From: a candidate division WOR-1 bacterium RIFOXYB2_FULL_46_45
Lineage (GTDB): Bacteria > Margulisbacteria > WOR-1 > XYC2-FULL-46-14
DNA length: 64,000 bases
Assembly (NCBI GenBank): GCA_001771585.1
Contig: MEUE01000001.1
Location: 317,789-381,788 of the forward strand
Reading direction: 5' to 3'
Shown here: piece after piece, positions 41,277-47,168 of the stretch
How the letters are laid out: every line of letters begins with the position of its first letter
Numbering within the stretch: the stretch's first letter is position 1
Position numbers and translations under genes: made by a program
Notes under the pieces: model-generated
The model's database searches: none
What the model saw: the letters and a program-made list of their open reading frames with translations, nothing else
What the model was told of the DNA's origin: nothing

Positions 41277-42273
41277 CCAAAATCTCCTTCAGTTTATTTA
41301 AAGCCGCCTTCGAATCGATCGACTCCTTGGCCTTCCCTACCCCTTCTTTGATTGAAGCGGCCAACCCCGCCACATAGATTACCGCGCCGGCATTAAAAAC
41401 GACAATGTCGCGGCAGGCACCGACTGCTTTTCCGGAAAGGACGGCAAGCGCCATCCTTTTATTTTGCGAGATATTCCCACAAATTAAATCCTCTTTTCTT
41501 CCTCTCTTCAAACCGACATCTTCTGGAAAAAGGGTATAATTTGTGATTTTTCCATTCTTCAATTCGGAGACATAGGTGCTTTTTGAAATCGAAATCTCGT
41601 CGAGGCCGTCGTTGCCGTGAACAACCAGGGCGCGTCTGACCCCCAAATTACGGAGAACATGGGCCATGGTAACAGTCAGGTTATGGGAAAAGACCCCCAA
41701 TAACTGCGCCCCCGCCCCGGCCGGATTAGTAAGCGGCCCCAGGATATTAAAGATCGTGCGGATCCCCAGCTCTCGTCTTACCGGCATAACATGTTTCGTC
41801 GCACGGTGAAAGAGCGGTGCAAAGATAAAACCGAAACCGGTCTTATTGATATTTCTTTCAACCTGTTTATTGGTAAGGTCGATTTTTACCCCCAGCGCTT
41901 CAAGCAGATCCGCGCTTCCGCACTTTGAGGAGACCGAGCGATTGCCGTGTTTGGCGATTGTAACCCCCGCCCCGGCCGCGACCAGAGCGGAAACGGTTGA
42001 GATATTGAAAGTGTTGGAAAGGTCGCCGCCGGTGCCGCAGGCATCGACAATTTTTCGGGATGCCGGAGAAATTTTTACCGCGTTTTTGCGCATTGCTTTG
42101 GCAAAACCGGTGATCTCGTCGATCGTCTCCCCTTTCATCCTAAGGGCGGTTAAAAGAGCGGCAATTTGAGCGGAAGTGGCTTTTCCGGCCATGATGATAT
42201 TTAAGGTCTTTTCCGCCTCGGAGAGCGTAAGATCACGGCGGTTTACGGCTTTATCGATGGCTGATTTAATCAT
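41266..42273 (-). CDS. trpD: Anthranilate phosphoribosyltransferase
   Basis: The 335-residue enzyme has the conserved D-A-C-G-T-G-G-D-L-S-N-T-F-N-I-S-T, K-H-G-N-R-S-V-S-S-K-C-G-S-A-D and V-H-G-N-D-G-L-D-E-I-S motifs. It joins anthranilate to PRPP in tryptophan synthesis. No other trp gene is nearby. A clear sigma-70 promoter precedes it. Confidence 0.96.
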   Translation of the reverse strand: MIKSAIDKAVNRRDLTLSEAEKTLNIIMAGKATSAQIAALLTALRMKGETIDEITGFAKAMRKNAVKISPASRKIVDACGTGGDLSNTFNISTVSALVAAGAGVTIAKHGNRSVSSKCGSADLLEALGVKIDLTNKQVERNINKTGFGFIFAPLFHRATKHVMPVRRELGIRTIFNILGPLTNPAGAGAQLLGVFSHNLTVTMAHVLRNLGVRRALVVHGNDGLDEISISKSTYVSELKNGKITNYTLFPEDVGLKRGRKEDLICGNISQNKRMALAVLSGKAVGACRDIVVFNAGAVIYVAGLAASIKEGVGKAKESIDSKAALNKLKEILDVH

Positions 42274-42284
42274 TGGTTTTCATT

Positions 42285-42313
42285 ATTATAGCACCCGAAA
42301 AAGCGGTAAGCAA
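42285..42313 (-). promoter_or_regulatory. Sigma-70-type promoter of trpD
   Basis: On the minus strand TTGCTT (42308-42313), a 17-base spacer, TATAAT (42285-42290), and the ATG 11 bases later without a ribosome site. It lies within the repeated promoter block of the divergent gene. Confidence 0.6.
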
Positions 42314-42359
42314 ACCGCAAGTTTTAGGGGCAAAAACACGATATATATAGTAGGGAAAT
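42295..42359 (+). repeat. Duplicated 65-bp promoter block, copy 1
   Basis: This block is almost the same as 44995-45058. From AACCGCAAG to GGGAAAT the two copies differ at only two of 47 bases (GG versus CC). The upstream part is also similar and here forms the small inverted repeat GCGGT...ACCGC. Each copy leads into an orphan gene with Cys/His motifs. Confidence 0.85.
42319..42343 (+). promoter_or_regulatory. Sigma-28-like promoter P3
   Basis: AAGTTT (42319-42324), 15 bases, GATA (42340-42343) followed by TATATAG. A ribosome site AGAGAGG lies at 42366-42372. Confidence 0.6.
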
Positions 42360-42378
42360 CTCCCAAGAGAGGTAAACC

Positions 42379-43947
42379 ATGGTAGAGTTAGGCGGCATAA
42401 GAAGCCGCAATGACCTTGTCCAATATATCAGGGAAAAAGACACAAAGAAAAAAGACGGCCGGGTGTCGGTTTCCGAAGATCCATCCGTAAAAAAATACTC
42501 CGGCTTTGACAAAGACAAGAACGGACTTGACGAAAAAGAACTAACCAGAGCATTGGATCTGTTTAAAATATGCCCGAATAGCTATTCAAGCCAGGCCTTC
42601 AAAGGCAACCTGTTGGGAATAATCTCCAGTCTTAGTTTAATTGGAACACAAATTGACGCGTTGCTGCACAGCAGTAATTATATAGACCAGGATAAATATA
42701 CCCTTTTGACGCTTCAAAGAATCAAGCTTTTTGTCGATTGTTCCACAGAACTGGAAATGGCCGAAAGTGTTTTGGGGGAACAAGAAACAAAAAACCTGCT
42801 TTCTTCTTTTGTAAAAGAAAACCCCAAATTAAACCAATATGTTTTTGAGTTGGCAACTTCTCCCGAGATCGCACAGGGCCTGCTGGAACAAGTGTTTTAT
42901 TTTGGGGCACTGGGCGCGAACCTGGGGGGGAGCGAAGAAGACAGAAATAAGTTTTTGCTTTTATTGTCCGATCTCCTTGCCGAAATTTCTCCTAATTATT
43001 CCGGAAAAGAATTACACCAAAAAATTACAGAATCCATAAAATGGCTTGAAAATAAAACAAATCAAGCAAAAATTGCGGAATTCTTTCACAAAAAAACAAG
43101 CCCCGATCTTTTCTGGGAAACAGAAGGAAGCGATAAGCTTTTATGCGCGCGGCATTTTTTCCCAAAATCAATATTTGATGCGCAAATAGAAGAAAAACTA
43201 CATGCAGTAAAAAAATATTCCCCGATCTTACTAGGAGGATCATTAAACCCCTATTCTCCTGCCGAGAGAAAAACAATGGCCGACAACTTTCTGGTGGCCT
43301 ACAATTGTTTGGCAAATAAAATGCCTTACGGCAACGGCAGAATAGGCAGAGACGGATCTCTTGTAAACAATGACCGGGAAAAAAATAAGCCGGGACTGTC
43401 TTGCATAGCGTTGGTTGAAACCTTGGTAAAAATGCTTTTTGGCAATCCGGAAATTAATACCAATATCAAAACTGGATTTAATCTGATTTTTGAGTCCGAA
43501 TTGAAAGACCGCCCCAAGCTAACAAACCTCACGGTTGAAATGTCCGATCCAAAACATAACAAAATAAAAGATCTTTTGGGCAAACTGGGAACGTATTTTG
43601 TGGTGCAATCTTATATGCCCAACGGGGAATATCTTTCTCCCGCTCATGCAGTCCTTGTCTTTAAAAATAAAGGGCAATGGTTTGTTTTTGAAGCTGCCGT
43701 AGCCGGTCAAACCGCAAAAGTAAGAAAACTTGACTGGTGGCTGGGAACACACTCCTATCAGTCATTAACCTTCATTCCATTAGATTGCACTTTAAAAAAT
43801 AACGAAAAGAAGATAATCCCTGTCCCCATGCAAAACAATAACTCTTTTATCGAGAATTTATTAAAGGCGGGAGTTCAAGCGATTAAAACCCATCCATATA
43901 AAAAAAATATTTTGGAGTTTCTGAAGCGTCACAGTGCAAAAGTTTAG
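42379..43947 (+). CDS. Orphan protein with EF-hand-like loops and papain/transglutaminase-like domain
   Basis: The protein is 522 residues with no signal peptide. The N terminus has two calcium-loop-like segments: D26-G-R-V-S-V-S-E33 and D44-K-D-K-N-G-L-D-E-K-E. A helical middle follows. The C-terminal domain has P-Y-G-N-G-R-I-G-R-D-G, then P-G-L-S-C342-I, L-G-T-Y-F-V-V-Q-S-Y, and H423-A-V with Glu438 15 residues later, just after G-Q-W. This order of Cys, His and acid fits papain-like or transglutaminase-like folds. It shares these motifs with the protein at 43944. Enzyme activity is inferred. The base composition looks more A+T-rich than neighbouring housekeeping genes. Confidence 0.7.
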   Translation: MVELGGIRSRNDLVQYIREKDTKKKDGRVSVSEDPSVKKYSGFDKDKNGLDEKELTRALDLFKICPNSYSSQAFKGNLLGIISSLSLIGTQIDALLHSSNYIDQDKYTLLTLQRIKLFVDCSTELEMAESVLGEQETKNLLSSFVKENPKLNQYVFELATSPEIAQGLLEQVFYFGALGANLGGSEEDRNKFLLLLSDLLAEISPNYSGKELHQKITESIKWLENKTNQAKIAEFFHKKTSPDLFWETEGSDKLLCARHFFPKSIFDAQIEEKLHAVKKYSPILLGGSLNPYSPAERKTMADNFLVAYNCLANKMPYGNGRIGRDGSLVNNDREKNKPGLSCIALVETLVKMLFGNPEINTNIKTGFNLIFESELKDRPKLTNLTVEMSDPKHNKIKDLLGKLGTYFVVQSYMPNGEYLSPAHAVLVFKNKGQWFVFEAAVAGQTAKVRKLDWWLGTHSYQSLTFIPLDCTLKNNEKKIIPVPMQNNNSFIENLLKAGVQAIKTHPYKKNILEFLKRHSAKV

Positions 43948-44906
43948 TTTCCGCCTTCTTTTTTGGCCTTTGCAATCGATTCTTTTAGATTATTAATAAA
44001 GTTTTTACTCTTTGCTTCCAAGACCGGCTGAGCCCCGGGAGTATCCACCAGATTTATTGTCATATGTGTCGCTGACGGGTAATATTTTAAAAGTTGAAAA
44101 ACCTCTCCAACTCGGCCAAACCCATTGTCCGACAACGTGTCCAATACATCAAAGCCTTTTCCTGTCTTATGAAGAAAAACCGTGTGAAAAGGCATTCCTT
44201 TTGTATACAACTGAACTGCAAAATATTTTCCGTATAAGTCCAATAATTCTTCAAGCCGGCTTATTTGTGATACAGGAAATTTTGAAATAACCGGAAAAGC
44301 ATACCCCCCCCGATTTTTAAATTCTGACTTGGTAAAAACATCTTCGTTAACGATCCCTCTTTTGAGCAAACCATTTGGATTAGGATCCACCAAGTTGGGA
44401 TGATATTCTTTTGCTCCTACAACAATATTTGAAAAAACATGGTTCATTCTGATGCAGTTTAATCCGTAAACAGTCTCGAATGTAAGACCATATATTTTTC
44501 TCTTCTTTTCCAGTTCCGCAGTTAATCTTATATTCCCATCCCCATCAATATAACCATGGTTATAAGGAGTTCCTTTAAATATTTTTAACGCGAATTCAAA
44601 ATTTTCCTGCAATGTTTGTTCCTGGCGGCCCGATAATTTAGGATGGACAGCGTCAATCAGTAGCTTTGCCGCCTGTTTTTTTCCTGCCAGAAACAATCGA
44701 TTGGCCAAAACAAAAGCCTTTTCCCTGAATGCCTCTTTACGCTCCTTTTCTTTAATGGAGCCAAAAAAAGTTTTTATCCGATTTAATGTTTTTCTTCTTC
44801 CAATCCCTTGATTTGCCGCTTCTCTTTCAAATTGTTCAAAAATATTTGACAAAAGGTCAAAAGCCGATTGGGGAACACAGAATATGGAATTAAACAGTAT
44901 TGCCAT
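43944..44906 (-). CDS. Orphan protein with papain/transglutaminase-like domain
   Basis: This 320-residue protein is homologous in its C-terminal half to the 42379 protein. It has P-Y-N-H-G-Y-I-D-G-D-G, Y-G-L-N-C151-I, Y-G-K-Y-F-A-V-Q-L-Y, and H241-T-V with D256 15 residues later. The N-terminal 100 residues are helical (F-D-L-L-S-N-I-F-E-Q-F). It has no EF-hand loop and no signal peptide. The gene is convergent with 42379 (4-base overlap). The ATG follows GATA by 7 bases with no ribosome site, so the mRNA is probably leaderless. Confidence 0.7.
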   Translation of the reverse strand: MAILFNSIFCVPQSAFDLLSNIFEQFEREAANQGIGRRKTLNRIKTFFGSIKEKERKEAFREKAFVLANRLFLAGKKQAAKLLIDAVHPKLSGRQEQTLQENFEFALKIFKGTPYNHGYIDGDGNIRLTAELEKKRKIYGLTFETVYGLNCIRMNHVFSNIVVGAKEYHPNLVDPNPNGLLKRGIVNEDVFTKSEFKNRGGYAFPVISKFPVSQISRLEELLDLYGKYFAVQLYTKGMPFHTVFLHKTGKGFDVLDTLSDNGFGRVGEVFQLLKYYPSATHMTINLVDTPGAQPVLEAKSKNFINNLKESIAKAKKEGGN

Positions 44907-44913
44907 GATGAAT

Positions 44914-44942
44914 TATCGTACCAAAACCACCCAAAATTTCAG
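44914..44942 (-). promoter_or_regulatory. Sigma-28-like promoter P4
   Basis: On the minus strand CTGAAATTT (44934-44942), 16 bases, GATA (44914-44917), then 7 bases to the ATG. Confidence 0.5.
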
Positions 44943-44994
44943 GTTATTTTGCCCACTTGTCCGAAAAGCCCGCCCCGTTTGATGGTAACCGAAG

Positions 44995-45058
44995 CCGAAA
45001 AGGCATAAAGAAACCGCAAGTTTTAGGCCCAAAAACACGATATATATAGTAGGGAAAT
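44995..45058 (+). repeat. Duplicated promoter block, copy 2
   Basis: Second copy of the block at 42295-42359, in the same orientation, and again upstream of a Cys/His orphan gene. It points to duplication of a promoter or of a whole gene whose coding part has since diverged. Confidence 0.85.
45018..45042 (+). promoter_or_regulatory. Sigma-28-like promoter P5
   Basis: AAGTTT (45018-45023), 15 bases, GATA (45039-45042). AGGAG at 45091-45095 precedes the ATG at 45099. Confidence 0.6.
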
Positions 45059-45098
45059 TCCCGACAACAATACCCTTTGAGGTGAAAAAGAGGAGTTT

Positions 45099-46619
45099 AT
45101 GATAGAGGTAAAACCAAAATACGGAATACCCATTTACCCTACCGGCAAGGACGGAGCCGATGGAGCTTCTTCCTCCGGCATTGAAGCAACCCAAAAAGGG
45201 ACCTCTACTCCGCAAAAACTAACGCTGGCCCGGCAGATATTCTCAGCCCTACAAAAAGAAGGATTTATCAGCAAAAAAACAAACCCATCGCTCGCTTTGA
45301 TAAAAACAATTGCATCTGTAATAAAAGATGACGACCAGGACGGTTATCTGGATGTTTCAAATCTTAGCCAATTGGCAAAAAAACTGGCCGGGATACTTAA
45401 AAAAGATGATCCGGAAAAAATGGGAAACTGCATTTCCGGATTAGAGCATGCCGACAGATATTTTAAAGATTATTCAAAAATGGAAGAATTGCTTGATCAA
45501 AGCCTGTTCGGCAATTCGAAACAGCTGAAAGAAAAAGAAAGTATCAGTAAGAACCCTCTCTATATGGCGGGGAAGGAAACCAAACTGATATCAGAAGGAA
45601 TAAAACACTTCCGCTCAAAATATTTATTAAAACACGGAAAAGATTGGTGGAGAAAACCCAATCTAATTGATGATTTTCAAAAAGAAATGCATAACTATCT
45701 TAAATCAAATTTTATACATGTCTGGAACCTAAACGATAATGCATTTGCCGGAACAGAAATCACAGACAGTACCTTAAACTATCTTTCAAAAGACCACCTT
45801 GGAAGGGTAAGGATCGATTGCAGGATGTATGCGCTGATTTCCGCGCAAATATTTAAATCTGTCGGCCTTAAAACCTCATTTGCCGCGGGATATGAAAACG
45901 AAAGCGGTATCGGCCACGCATTCACTATTGCAAAAGCCTGTTCGGACAAGCAAAATACGACTTTTATCTCAAGCAGCGAGTATGTCTATTCCATTACAAG
46001 CTCCCAGGGAAAAGCAATTACCGAACTGGACTTGATCACTAAAATAGATGAAGAAGAAACAGAATATCAAAGTTTGGCCTTTGCTTCGGACATAGACAAA
46101 GCGGCAGAGCTTGCTCTCTCTAAAATGCCAAAAATGAAAAGCTTTTCCCTTCTTTTAAAACAAGTTGAAATAACGGTAAATTTTTTGGCAAAATACAAAA
46201 ACTCTGAACAAGAAAGACTGTTGATGCTGTATTCCGATGGGAAAGAGAGGGATTCCGAGTTCTACGGCAGAAGAATACTCGAAACGCTTAATGAGCTAGA
46301 AAAGAACATCGATAAACTGCCTAAAGACTTAATGGCTTTGACAACAGCCGGAACAACAGTAAAAATCAAAAGCAATGAACTATCAGATCTAATCAGAAAC
46401 TTGCGGATTGTAATTTTTTATCATCTGAACAACTATCGGCCTGGAAGCTTAAGCTGGGAAGAAAGAAACAAATACATCTGCATCGCAACCGAAGTGGAAA
46501 ACGCCTTTTCTTACCTTTCAAAAATAGCCGCGTTTAAAGATTTAGTTGCCGAAGTAAACAAAAGATTTTTAGCGGCTAATAATAACCGCGATTCTGGAAG
46601 AATAATAGAGAGCCCTTAA
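45099..46619 (+). CDS. Orphan protein with EF-hand-like loop and transglutaminase-like core
   Basis: The protein is 506 residues. After a polar N terminus there is one good EF-hand-type loop D77-D-D-Q-D-G-Y-L-D85. The middle has I-D-C241-R-M-Y-A-L-I-S-A-Q-I-F-K-S-V-G-L and G-I-G-H273-A-F-T-I, the Cys and His spacing of transglutaminase-like domains. The C-terminal 180 residues are helical. It has no signal peptide or membrane span. The Cys/His motifs are weaker matches to the other two cluster proteins, so shared ancestry is likely but not certain. It is convergent with the next gene, overlapping by 51 bases. Confidence 0.7.
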   Translation: MIEVKPKYGIPIYPTGKDGADGASSSGIEATQKGTSTPQKLTLARQIFSALQKEGFISKKTNPSLALIKTIASVIKDDDQDGYLDVSNLSQLAKKLAGILKKDDPEKMGNCISGLEHADRYFKDYSKMEELLDQSLFGNSKQLKEKESISKNPLYMAGKETKLISEGIKHFRSKYLLKHGKDWWRKPNLIDDFQKEMHNYLKSNFIHVWNLNDNAFAGTEITDSTLNYLSKDHLGRVRIDCRMYALISAQIFKSVGLKTSFAAGYENESGIGHAFTIAKACSDKQNTTFISSSEYVYSITSSQGKAITELDLITKIDEEETEYQSLAFASDIDKAAELALSKMPKMKSFSLLLKQVEITVNFLAKYKNSEQERLLMLYSDGKERDSEFYGRRILETLNELEKNIDKLPKDLMALTTAGTTVKIKSNELSDLIRNLRIVIFYHLNNYRPGSLSWEERNKYICIATEVENAFSYLSKIAAFKDLVAEVNKRFLAANNNRDSGRIIESP

Positions 46620-47168
46620 CGAATATTCGCTGCCTCCCGAACATTCTTTTTGAACCCGCAAAAAATTATCGAGCGATTTTTCCCAAAGATGCCCCTTTTT
46701 ATAAATAATCCCCAGCTGTAACCGCATATAAGGGACAAAGGGATCAATACCGCAGACTTTTCGCTCTTCAATCTTTTTCTCGATAATTATTGCCGCTTGG
46801 CTTGGAATCCCCTCTCTGCGGAATATTTCGGCAGACAACAAATCCAAAACATCGCTTCTCCGATTCTGCTCCACGGCGGTTTTCAATAGATCATGTGCGA
46901 GGGCATAATTACCCTTGTTTAATTCGGCATAGGCTTTTTTTGCGTATTCGGGCTTAGGTAATTTATCCAAAAGACCGACAAGAAATCCTTTGTTTTTTCC
47001 GAAGGCGCCATTTCTCCGGCAGGCGGCAGGATGATAGTTTTTAAAATCATCTTCTTTTTTGGCACGCGCCGCAAATTTTCCGCTTTTTTTACCCTGGACA
47101 GAAGAGTAAACTCCCCCACTCTTCGGAAAAGAGACATCTTTTACACCAGCATCTAATCTTTCTCCCAT
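46569..47168 (-). CDS. Orphan protein with TPR-like C-terminal half
   Basis: In this 199-residue protein the first 65 residues are polar and basic (G-K-K-S-G-K-F-A-A-R-A-K-K). The rest is helical with TPR-like A-Y-A-E-L-N-K-G-N-Y-A-L-A-H-D-L-L and Y-M-R-L-Q-L-G-I-I-Y-K-K-G-H-L-W-E-K-S-L-D-N-F. It is probably a binding protein; its partner may be one of the Cys/His proteins beside it. The ATG is 7 bases after the GATA of a sigma-28-like promoter and has no ribosome site. Confidence 0.65.
   Translation of the reverse strand: MGERLDAGVKDVSFPKSGGVYSSVQGKKSGKFAARAKKEDDFKNYHPAACRRNGAFGKNKGFLVGLLDKLPKPEYAKKAYAELNKGNYALAHDLLKTAVEQNRRSDVLDLLSAEIFRREGIPSQAAIIIEKKIEERKVCGIDPFVPYMRLQLGIIYKKGHLWEKSLDNFLRVQKECSGGSEYSLRALYYSSRIAVIISR

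What the first reader, a model, noticed from the sequence alone, without database searches (positions are those of the whole stretch)
42379..46619. Cluster of papain/transglutaminase-like orphan proteins with EF-hand-like loops
The proteins at 42379 and 43944 share PY-x2-G-x-I-x2-DG, GL-x-C-I, (T/K)YF-x-VQ-x-Y, and H-(A/T)-V with an acidic residue exactly 15 positions after His. The protein at 45099 has D-C-R and G-H-A-F in the same order. The 42379 and 45099 proteins carry DxDx(D/N)G calcium-loop-like segments near the N terminus. A TPR-like partner gene (46569) lies next to them. Calcium-gated thiol enzymes or crosslinkers, made together under one regulator, is a plausible and apparently undescribed system.
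Basis: partly seen in the sequence, partly recalled or inferred. Interest (0 to 1): 0.85.

Follow-up and report, generated by a model that had tools for sequence, protein, structure and literature searches.

The report
Orphan papain-like enzymes, weak calcium loops
Three neighbouring orphan genes of an uncultured bacterium most likely encode papain-like (thiol) enzymes from two unnamed families; the enzyme idea holds up, but the proposed calcium switch, shared regulation and TPR partner do not.

Summary
The motifs are real. The C-terminal domains of the 42379 (+) and 43944 (-) proteins are homologous: profiles built without each target still find it (E 2e-8, 5e-22). Their only other detected relative keeps Cys, His and an acid exactly 15 after His. 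The AlphaFold model of the 43944 protein (core pLDDT about 70-85) is papain-like; the best structural matches are DUF1460 amidases (Z 8.5-8.8). The 45099 protein belongs to a different family, probably transglutaminase-like: three relatives keep Cys, His, a nearby acid and a DxDxDG loop, but its own model failed. No Pfam or NCBIfam family matches. The calcium reading is weak: DxDxDG motifs occur at chance rate in the proteome, both EF-hand loops of the 42379 protein are degenerate (a relative has an intact pair), and the 43944 protein has none. The genes alternate strands, so they form no operon; the TPR match is sub-threshold. Most of these proteins lack Sec signals, two relatives carry LysM domains, and the genome encodes a flagellar type III apparatus with no flagellin and a FliG lacking its motor domain. 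Best reading: thiol peptidases or amidases acting outside the cytoplasm; export by that apparatus is only an inference.

The parts
42379..43947 (+). Orphan protein P0001, 522 aa: EF-hand-like N-terminus, helical middle, papain-like C-terminal domain
42427..42558 (+). Degenerate EF-hand pair (residues 17-60): loop 1 DTKKKDGRVSVSE has an extra residue and Lys at position 3; loop 2 DKDKNG-LDEKE is one residue short
   Evidence: 48% identical to the N-terminus of P0007, which passes Pfam EF-hand_1
43204..43893 (+). Papain-like domain of P0001 (residues 276-505) with Cys342, His423, Glu438
   Evidence: Homology to the P0002 domain
43944..44906 (-). Orphan protein P0002, 320 aa, minus strand
43977..44609 (-). 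Papain-like domain of P0002 (residues 100-310) with Cys151, His241, Asp256
   Evidence: AlphaFold model and structural matches
45099..46619 (+). Orphan protein P0003, 506 aa
45327..45362 (+). EF-hand-like loop DDDQDGYLDVSN (residues 77-88), no acid at position 12
   Evidence: DxDxDG kept in P0005, P0008 and P0009
45651..45998 (+). Transglutaminase-like domain of P0003 (residues 185-300) with Cys241, His273 and a conserved acid near residue 294
46569..47168 (-). Orphan protein P0004, 199 aa, with a sub-threshold TPR-like stretch; no evidence that it belongs to the set

Best explanation
The 42379 and 43944 proteins carry a papain-like thiol hydrolase domain of an undescribed family that resembles DUF1460 and NlpC/P60 amidases in fold. 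Cys attacks a peptide or amide bond, His activates the Cys, and an Asp/Glu 15 residues on orients the His. The 45099 protein carries a separate, transglutaminase-like thiol domain with Cys, His and an acid. Shown: homology, conservation of the Cys/His/acid set, papain-like predicted fold of the 43944 protein. Inferred: that the domains are active, that they hydrolyse peptides or peptidoglycan rather than cross-link, and that they act outside the cytoplasm. Export without a Sec signal, possibly through the flagellin-less flagellar type III apparatus of this genome, is a further and weaker inference. The EF-hand-like segments of these copies are best read as degenerate or structural rather than as a working calcium switch.
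For: Leave-one-out profile matches and conserved C/H/acid; model with pTM 0.68 and core pLDDT 70-85; structural matches almost all papain-like, led by DUF1460 amidases at Z 8.5-8.8; P0003 family with conserved Cys, Tyr, His and Cys/His in register with Transglut_core, P 7.7e-4; no Sec signal in P0001 and P0003; LysM domain in two P0003 relatives.
Against: Only three homologous sequences carry the first family, so the model rests on a shallow alignment; no Foldseek hit reached E 0.001. The P0003 model failed (pLDDT 44) and its Transglut_core probability is only 25%. No activity, localisation or export was measured. P0002 and P0006 begin with a short hydrophobic stretch.
Confidence: 0.6

Rival explanations
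1. Calcium-gated thiol enzymes or crosslinkers: N-terminal EF-hand loops bind calcium and switch the C-terminal enzyme on.
For: The P0001 N-terminus is homologous to an intact EF-hand pair in P0007; the P0003 loop keeps DxDxDG in all relatives; calcium-dependent activation recurs among transglutaminase-like proteases such as LapG (PMC4866520).
Against: Both P0001 loops are degenerate, the P0003 loop lacks the acid at position 12, P0002 has no loop, and the short motif is at chance rate in the proteome.
Confidence: 0.15
2. Cell-wall enzymes: amidases or endopeptidases of the bacterium's own peptidoglycan, exported by an unrecognised route.
For: Best structural matches are DUF1460 amidases and NlpC/P60 endopeptidases; LysM in P0005 and P0009.
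Against: No Sec signal in P0001 or P0003; no LysM or other wall-binding domain in the window proteins; the matched superfamily is also rich in injected and cytosolic enzymes.
Confidence: 0.25
3. Substrates (effector-like proteins) of the flagellin-less flagellar type III apparatus, used against other cells.
For: Flagellar export gate, rod, rings and ATPase present, no flagellin, FliG without its C-terminal domain; signal-less proteins; papain-like folds are frequent among injected effectors (one search list); P0003 N-terminus resembles a 435-aa protein of the flagellar cluster (E 0.067).
Against: No linkage of the window to the apparatus, no chaperone gene recognised, the N-terminal resemblance was found post hoc, and the apparatus was not looked for in the genomes that hold the relatives.
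Confidence: 0.2
4. Non-enzymatic or decaying orphan genes whose fold is kept without catalysis.
For: Low GC (5th-9th percentile of genes), fast divergence and very sparse distribution.
Against: Cys and His are invariant across homologues that share only 25-33% identity.
Confidence: 0.12

Closest known systems
DUF1460 / AmiA-like amidases (PF07313; PDB 4h4j, 4q5k, 2im9)
   Same: Predicted fold (Z 8.5-8.8 over 158-166 residues); Cys followed by a downstream His
   Different: No Pfam match; third catalytic residue is Asp/Glu, whereas DUF1460 uses a second His (PMC10318531)
NlpC/P60 endopeptidases (PF00877; e.g. MepS, P60 domains)
   Same: Papain-like fold (Z about 5-7)
   Different: No Pfam match; CHH triad there, Cys-His-acid here
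Transglut_core (PF01841) and LapG-like BTLCP proteases
   Same: Cys at the start of a helix, downstream His and acid; profile comparison aligns Cys and His; calcium-dependent members exist
   Different: The 45099 protein matches no Pfam model; its candidate acid lies 21 residues after His
EF-hand proteins (PF00036, PF13202)
   Same: The P0001 N-terminus is homologous to an EF-hand pair in P0007
   Different: Loop lengths and liganding residues are disturbed in P0001; P0003 has a single loop without the position-12 acid
LysGH15, a phage lysin with an EF-hand-like calcium site (title in the reference list of PMC10318531)
   Same: Pairs an EF-hand-like site with a papain-like hydrolase
   Different: There the site lies within the catalytic domain (own knowledge); here the EF-hand-like segment lies about 215 residues upstream of the domain and is degenerate

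Membership tests
Papain-like superfamily (Pfam clan Peptidase_CA), 42379 and 43944 proteins | Papain-like fold | tested here: met
   Predicted model of P0002; structural matches almost all papain-like. Predicted only; P0001 by homology
Papain-like superfamily (Pfam clan Peptidase_CA), 42379 and 43944 proteins | Conserved Cys, His and polar/acidic third residue | tested here: met
   Conserved in P0001, P0002, P0006
Papain-like superfamily (Pfam clan Peptidase_CA), 42379 and 43944 proteins | Cys, His and third residue adjacent in space | not testable with these tools
DUF1460 / AmiA-like (PF07313) | Match to the family profile | tested here: not met
   hmmscan without a match up to E 10; no match over cut-off in own genome
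DUF1460 / AmiA-like (PF07313) | Second His as third catalytic residue | tested here: not met
   Asp/Glu at the conserved position; CHH stated in PMC10318531
Transglut_core (PF01841), 45099 protein | Match to the family profile | tested here: not met
   No match in hmmscan or in the own genome
Transglut_core (PF01841), 45099 protein | Cys-His-Asp in the family's order and fold | tested here: inconclusive
   Cys and His in register, P 7.7e-4, probability 25%; model failed
EF-hand, 42379 protein | Two 12-residue loops with ligands at 1, 3, 5 and 12 | tested here: not met
   Insertion and lost ligands in loop 1, deletion in loop 2, against P0007
EF-hand, 42379 protein | Homology to an EF-hand pair | tested here: met
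   P0007 N-terminus finds P0001 at 1.2e-10 and passes Pfam EF-hand_1
Type III secretion substrate | Secretion through a type III apparatus | not testable with these tools
   Only the absence of a Sec signal and the presence of an apparatus in the genome were shown
TPR protein, 46569 | TPR profile above cut-off | tested here: not met
   TPR_2 14.3 bits against 27

The most novel reading that the evidence does not exclude
These proteins are exported by a flagellar type III apparatus that has lost flagellin and the motor-contacting domain of FliG, and belong to a lineage-specific set of signal-less proteins that pair EF-hand-like segments with varied thiol-protease domains (papain-like, transglutaminase-like, caspase-like), calcium being sensed after export.
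Probability: 0.1. Interest if true: 0.85.

Novelty: new member of a known kind. Interest (0 to 1): 0.42.

Why it matters
Two sequence families that no library names can be placed, with different certainty, in the papain-like superfamily, which gives testable active-site residues for proteins that would otherwise stay orphans. The wider observation, a flagellin-less flagellar type III apparatus together with signal-less proteins of this kind in an uncultured lineage, would bear on how flagellar export was turned into secretion, if export is shown.

Tried and rejected
Relatives in IMG/VR and plasmids: none. PHROGs and PADLOC: nothing for the window proteins beyond a chance-level Csm2 score at E 0.011. 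Sequence search of solved structures: nothing for the catalytic domains. Single-sequence model of the 45099 domain: pLDDT 44, not searched further. A common origin of the 42379/43944 domain with the 45099 domain: profile comparison negative. One operon: rejected by strands. My first leave-one-out run read gapped copies of some sequences, as did the residue positions; both were repeated correctly and only those figures are used (the GC statistics are unaffected). Pattern searches for flagellar motor proteins are crude and count only as a hint.

Full report
Observation. All four open reading frames exist at the stated coordinates, on alternating strands (+, -, +, -). The proteins match no Pfam or NCBIfam family above its cut-off. 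The genome is a nearly complete 1.7-Mb assembly of four contigs.

Homology of the first two proteins. P0001 (42379) and P0002 (43944) align over about 190 residues (E 2e-6). One further homologue was found among the relatives searched, P0006 in genome G014 (E 2.5e-16), on contig JAHFDA010000009.1 of the assembly nzgw234; a profile search of 74 genomes of the phylum added no convincing one. Profiles built from any two of the three find the third at E 1.8e-8, 5.4e-22 and 3.2e-15. All three keep G-[LI]-[NS]-C-I, the His, and an acid exactly 15 residues after it. No relative was found in viral contigs or plasmids, so the family is rare.

Fold. AlphaFold on P0002 with its two relatives gave mean pLDDT 64.5 and pTM 0.68, with 168 residues at 70-90. 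No Foldseek hit reached E 0.001. In the structural realignment the top rows are the DUF1460 amidase BACUNI_02947 (three entries), the DUF1460 protein LPG0564 and a structure titled putative xylanase (Z 8.3-8.8 over 152-166 residues), followed by YopQ (7.9) and a long list of NlpC/P60 and other papain-like proteins. Z of 8-9 alone would be modest; the consistency of the list together with the independent Cys/His/acid pattern makes the papain-like assignment likely. The protein is not a DUF1460 member: no Pfam match, and its third residue is acidic where DUF1460 uses a second His.

The third protein. P0003 (45099) belongs to a separate family. G014 encodes P0005 and P0009, and genome G069 a weaker relative, P0008. 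All four keep Cys, a Tyr three residues later, His, and an acid some 20-25 residues after His. A profile of the three relatives finds P0003 at 8.8e-9, although a profile without P0008 did not find P0008. Against Transglut_core sequences of the same phylum the profile comparison gave probability 25%, P 7.7e-4, with Cys and His in register. The single-sequence model failed. Transglutaminase-like is therefore probable, not shown.

Calcium. The six-residue motif DxDx(D/N)G occurs in 19 of about 1,680 predicted ORFs against 16.7 in shuffled sequences, so on its own it means nothing. By homology, however, the P0001 N-terminus is an EF-hand pair: it is 46-48% identical to the N-terminus of P0007 from genome G066, which passes Pfam's EF-hand cut-off. 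In P0001, loop 1 has gained a residue and lost an acidic ligand, and loop 2 has lost a residue. The P0003 loop keeps DxDxDG in all relatives but lacks the acid at position 12. P0002 has none. A calcium switch in these copies is therefore unlikely but not excluded.

Wider pattern. P0007 carries its EF-hand pair in front of a segment with H-x-x-H and G-S-C motifs, and P0011 of genome G073 has an EF-hand-like segment and a similar H/C pair. Both look caspase-like by eye, without database support. EF-hand-like segments thus seem to recur with candidate thiol-protease domains in this order.

Context and export. P0001, P0003 and most relatives have no Sec-type N-terminus, while FlgI, FlgH and FlgA of the same genome have a strongly hydrophobic one; P0002 and P0006 begin with a short hydrophobic stretch that is not a clear signal. 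P0005 and P0009 carry LysM domains, which are expected to work outside the cytoplasm. The genome encodes FlhA, FliK, FliM, FlhB and a rod/hook-type protein, and FliI, FliF, rod proteins, FlgG, FlgH, FlgI and a 172-aa FliG with N-terminal and middle domains only. It has no Flagellin_N match, nor has any searched genome of its class above the cut-off, whereas three genomes elsewhere in the phylum do. Flagellin-less basal bodies are known in Buchnera and have been proposed to secrete (PMC8109811). That the window proteins are substrates is an inference; the closest hint, the resemblance of the P0003 N-terminus to a 435-aa protein of the flagellar cluster (E 0.067), was found after the fact.

Verdict. 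The thiol-enzyme idea is supported for two proteins and plausible for the third; calcium gating, joint regulation and a TPR partner are not supported. The proteins are new families of a known superfamily. Interest is moderate, raised somewhat by the genome context.

Noticed in passing
own genome G000, C3:10097-20905 (L110) and C3:248379-257098 (L122), outside the window: Flagellar type III apparatus with rod, P- and L-ring, FliF, FliI and export gate, but no flagellin in this genome or (above cut-off) in any searched genome of its class, and a 172-aa FliG without its C-terminal motor domain.
   Followed up: partly
own genome G000, C1:163484-176582 (L042), outside the window: Cluster of signal-less orphan proteins (331, 1525, 90, 140, 105, 591 and 524 aa) without convincing Pfam matches; the 1525-aa protein has hydrophobic stretches that by eye recall type III translocators.
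   Followed up: partly
L008:4175-6223 (G066) and L038:9710-13749 (G073): Proteins with EF-hand or DxDxDG-type segments and a caspase-like H/C pair by eye; in G066 an L,D-transpeptidase-like gene lies next to it.
   Followed up: no
window 45099-45180 and own genome C3:20954-22261: The N-terminus of the 45099 protein (GIPIYPTGKDGADGASSSG) has as its best match among all N-termini of the genome a 435-aa protein of the flagellar cluster (GKPIIWPTGKGSSSSSAV; E 0.067, post hoc).
   Followed up: partly
own genome G000, C1:749998-751887, outside the window: 629-aa signal-less orphan with a canonical EF-hand loop (DVNRDGLITKDE) near its N-terminus.
   Followed up: no
window 42000-46600: GC falls to 0.39-0.41 against about 0.47 around it; the three genes lie at the 5th-9th percentile of gene GC, between housekeeping genes.
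   Followed up: partly
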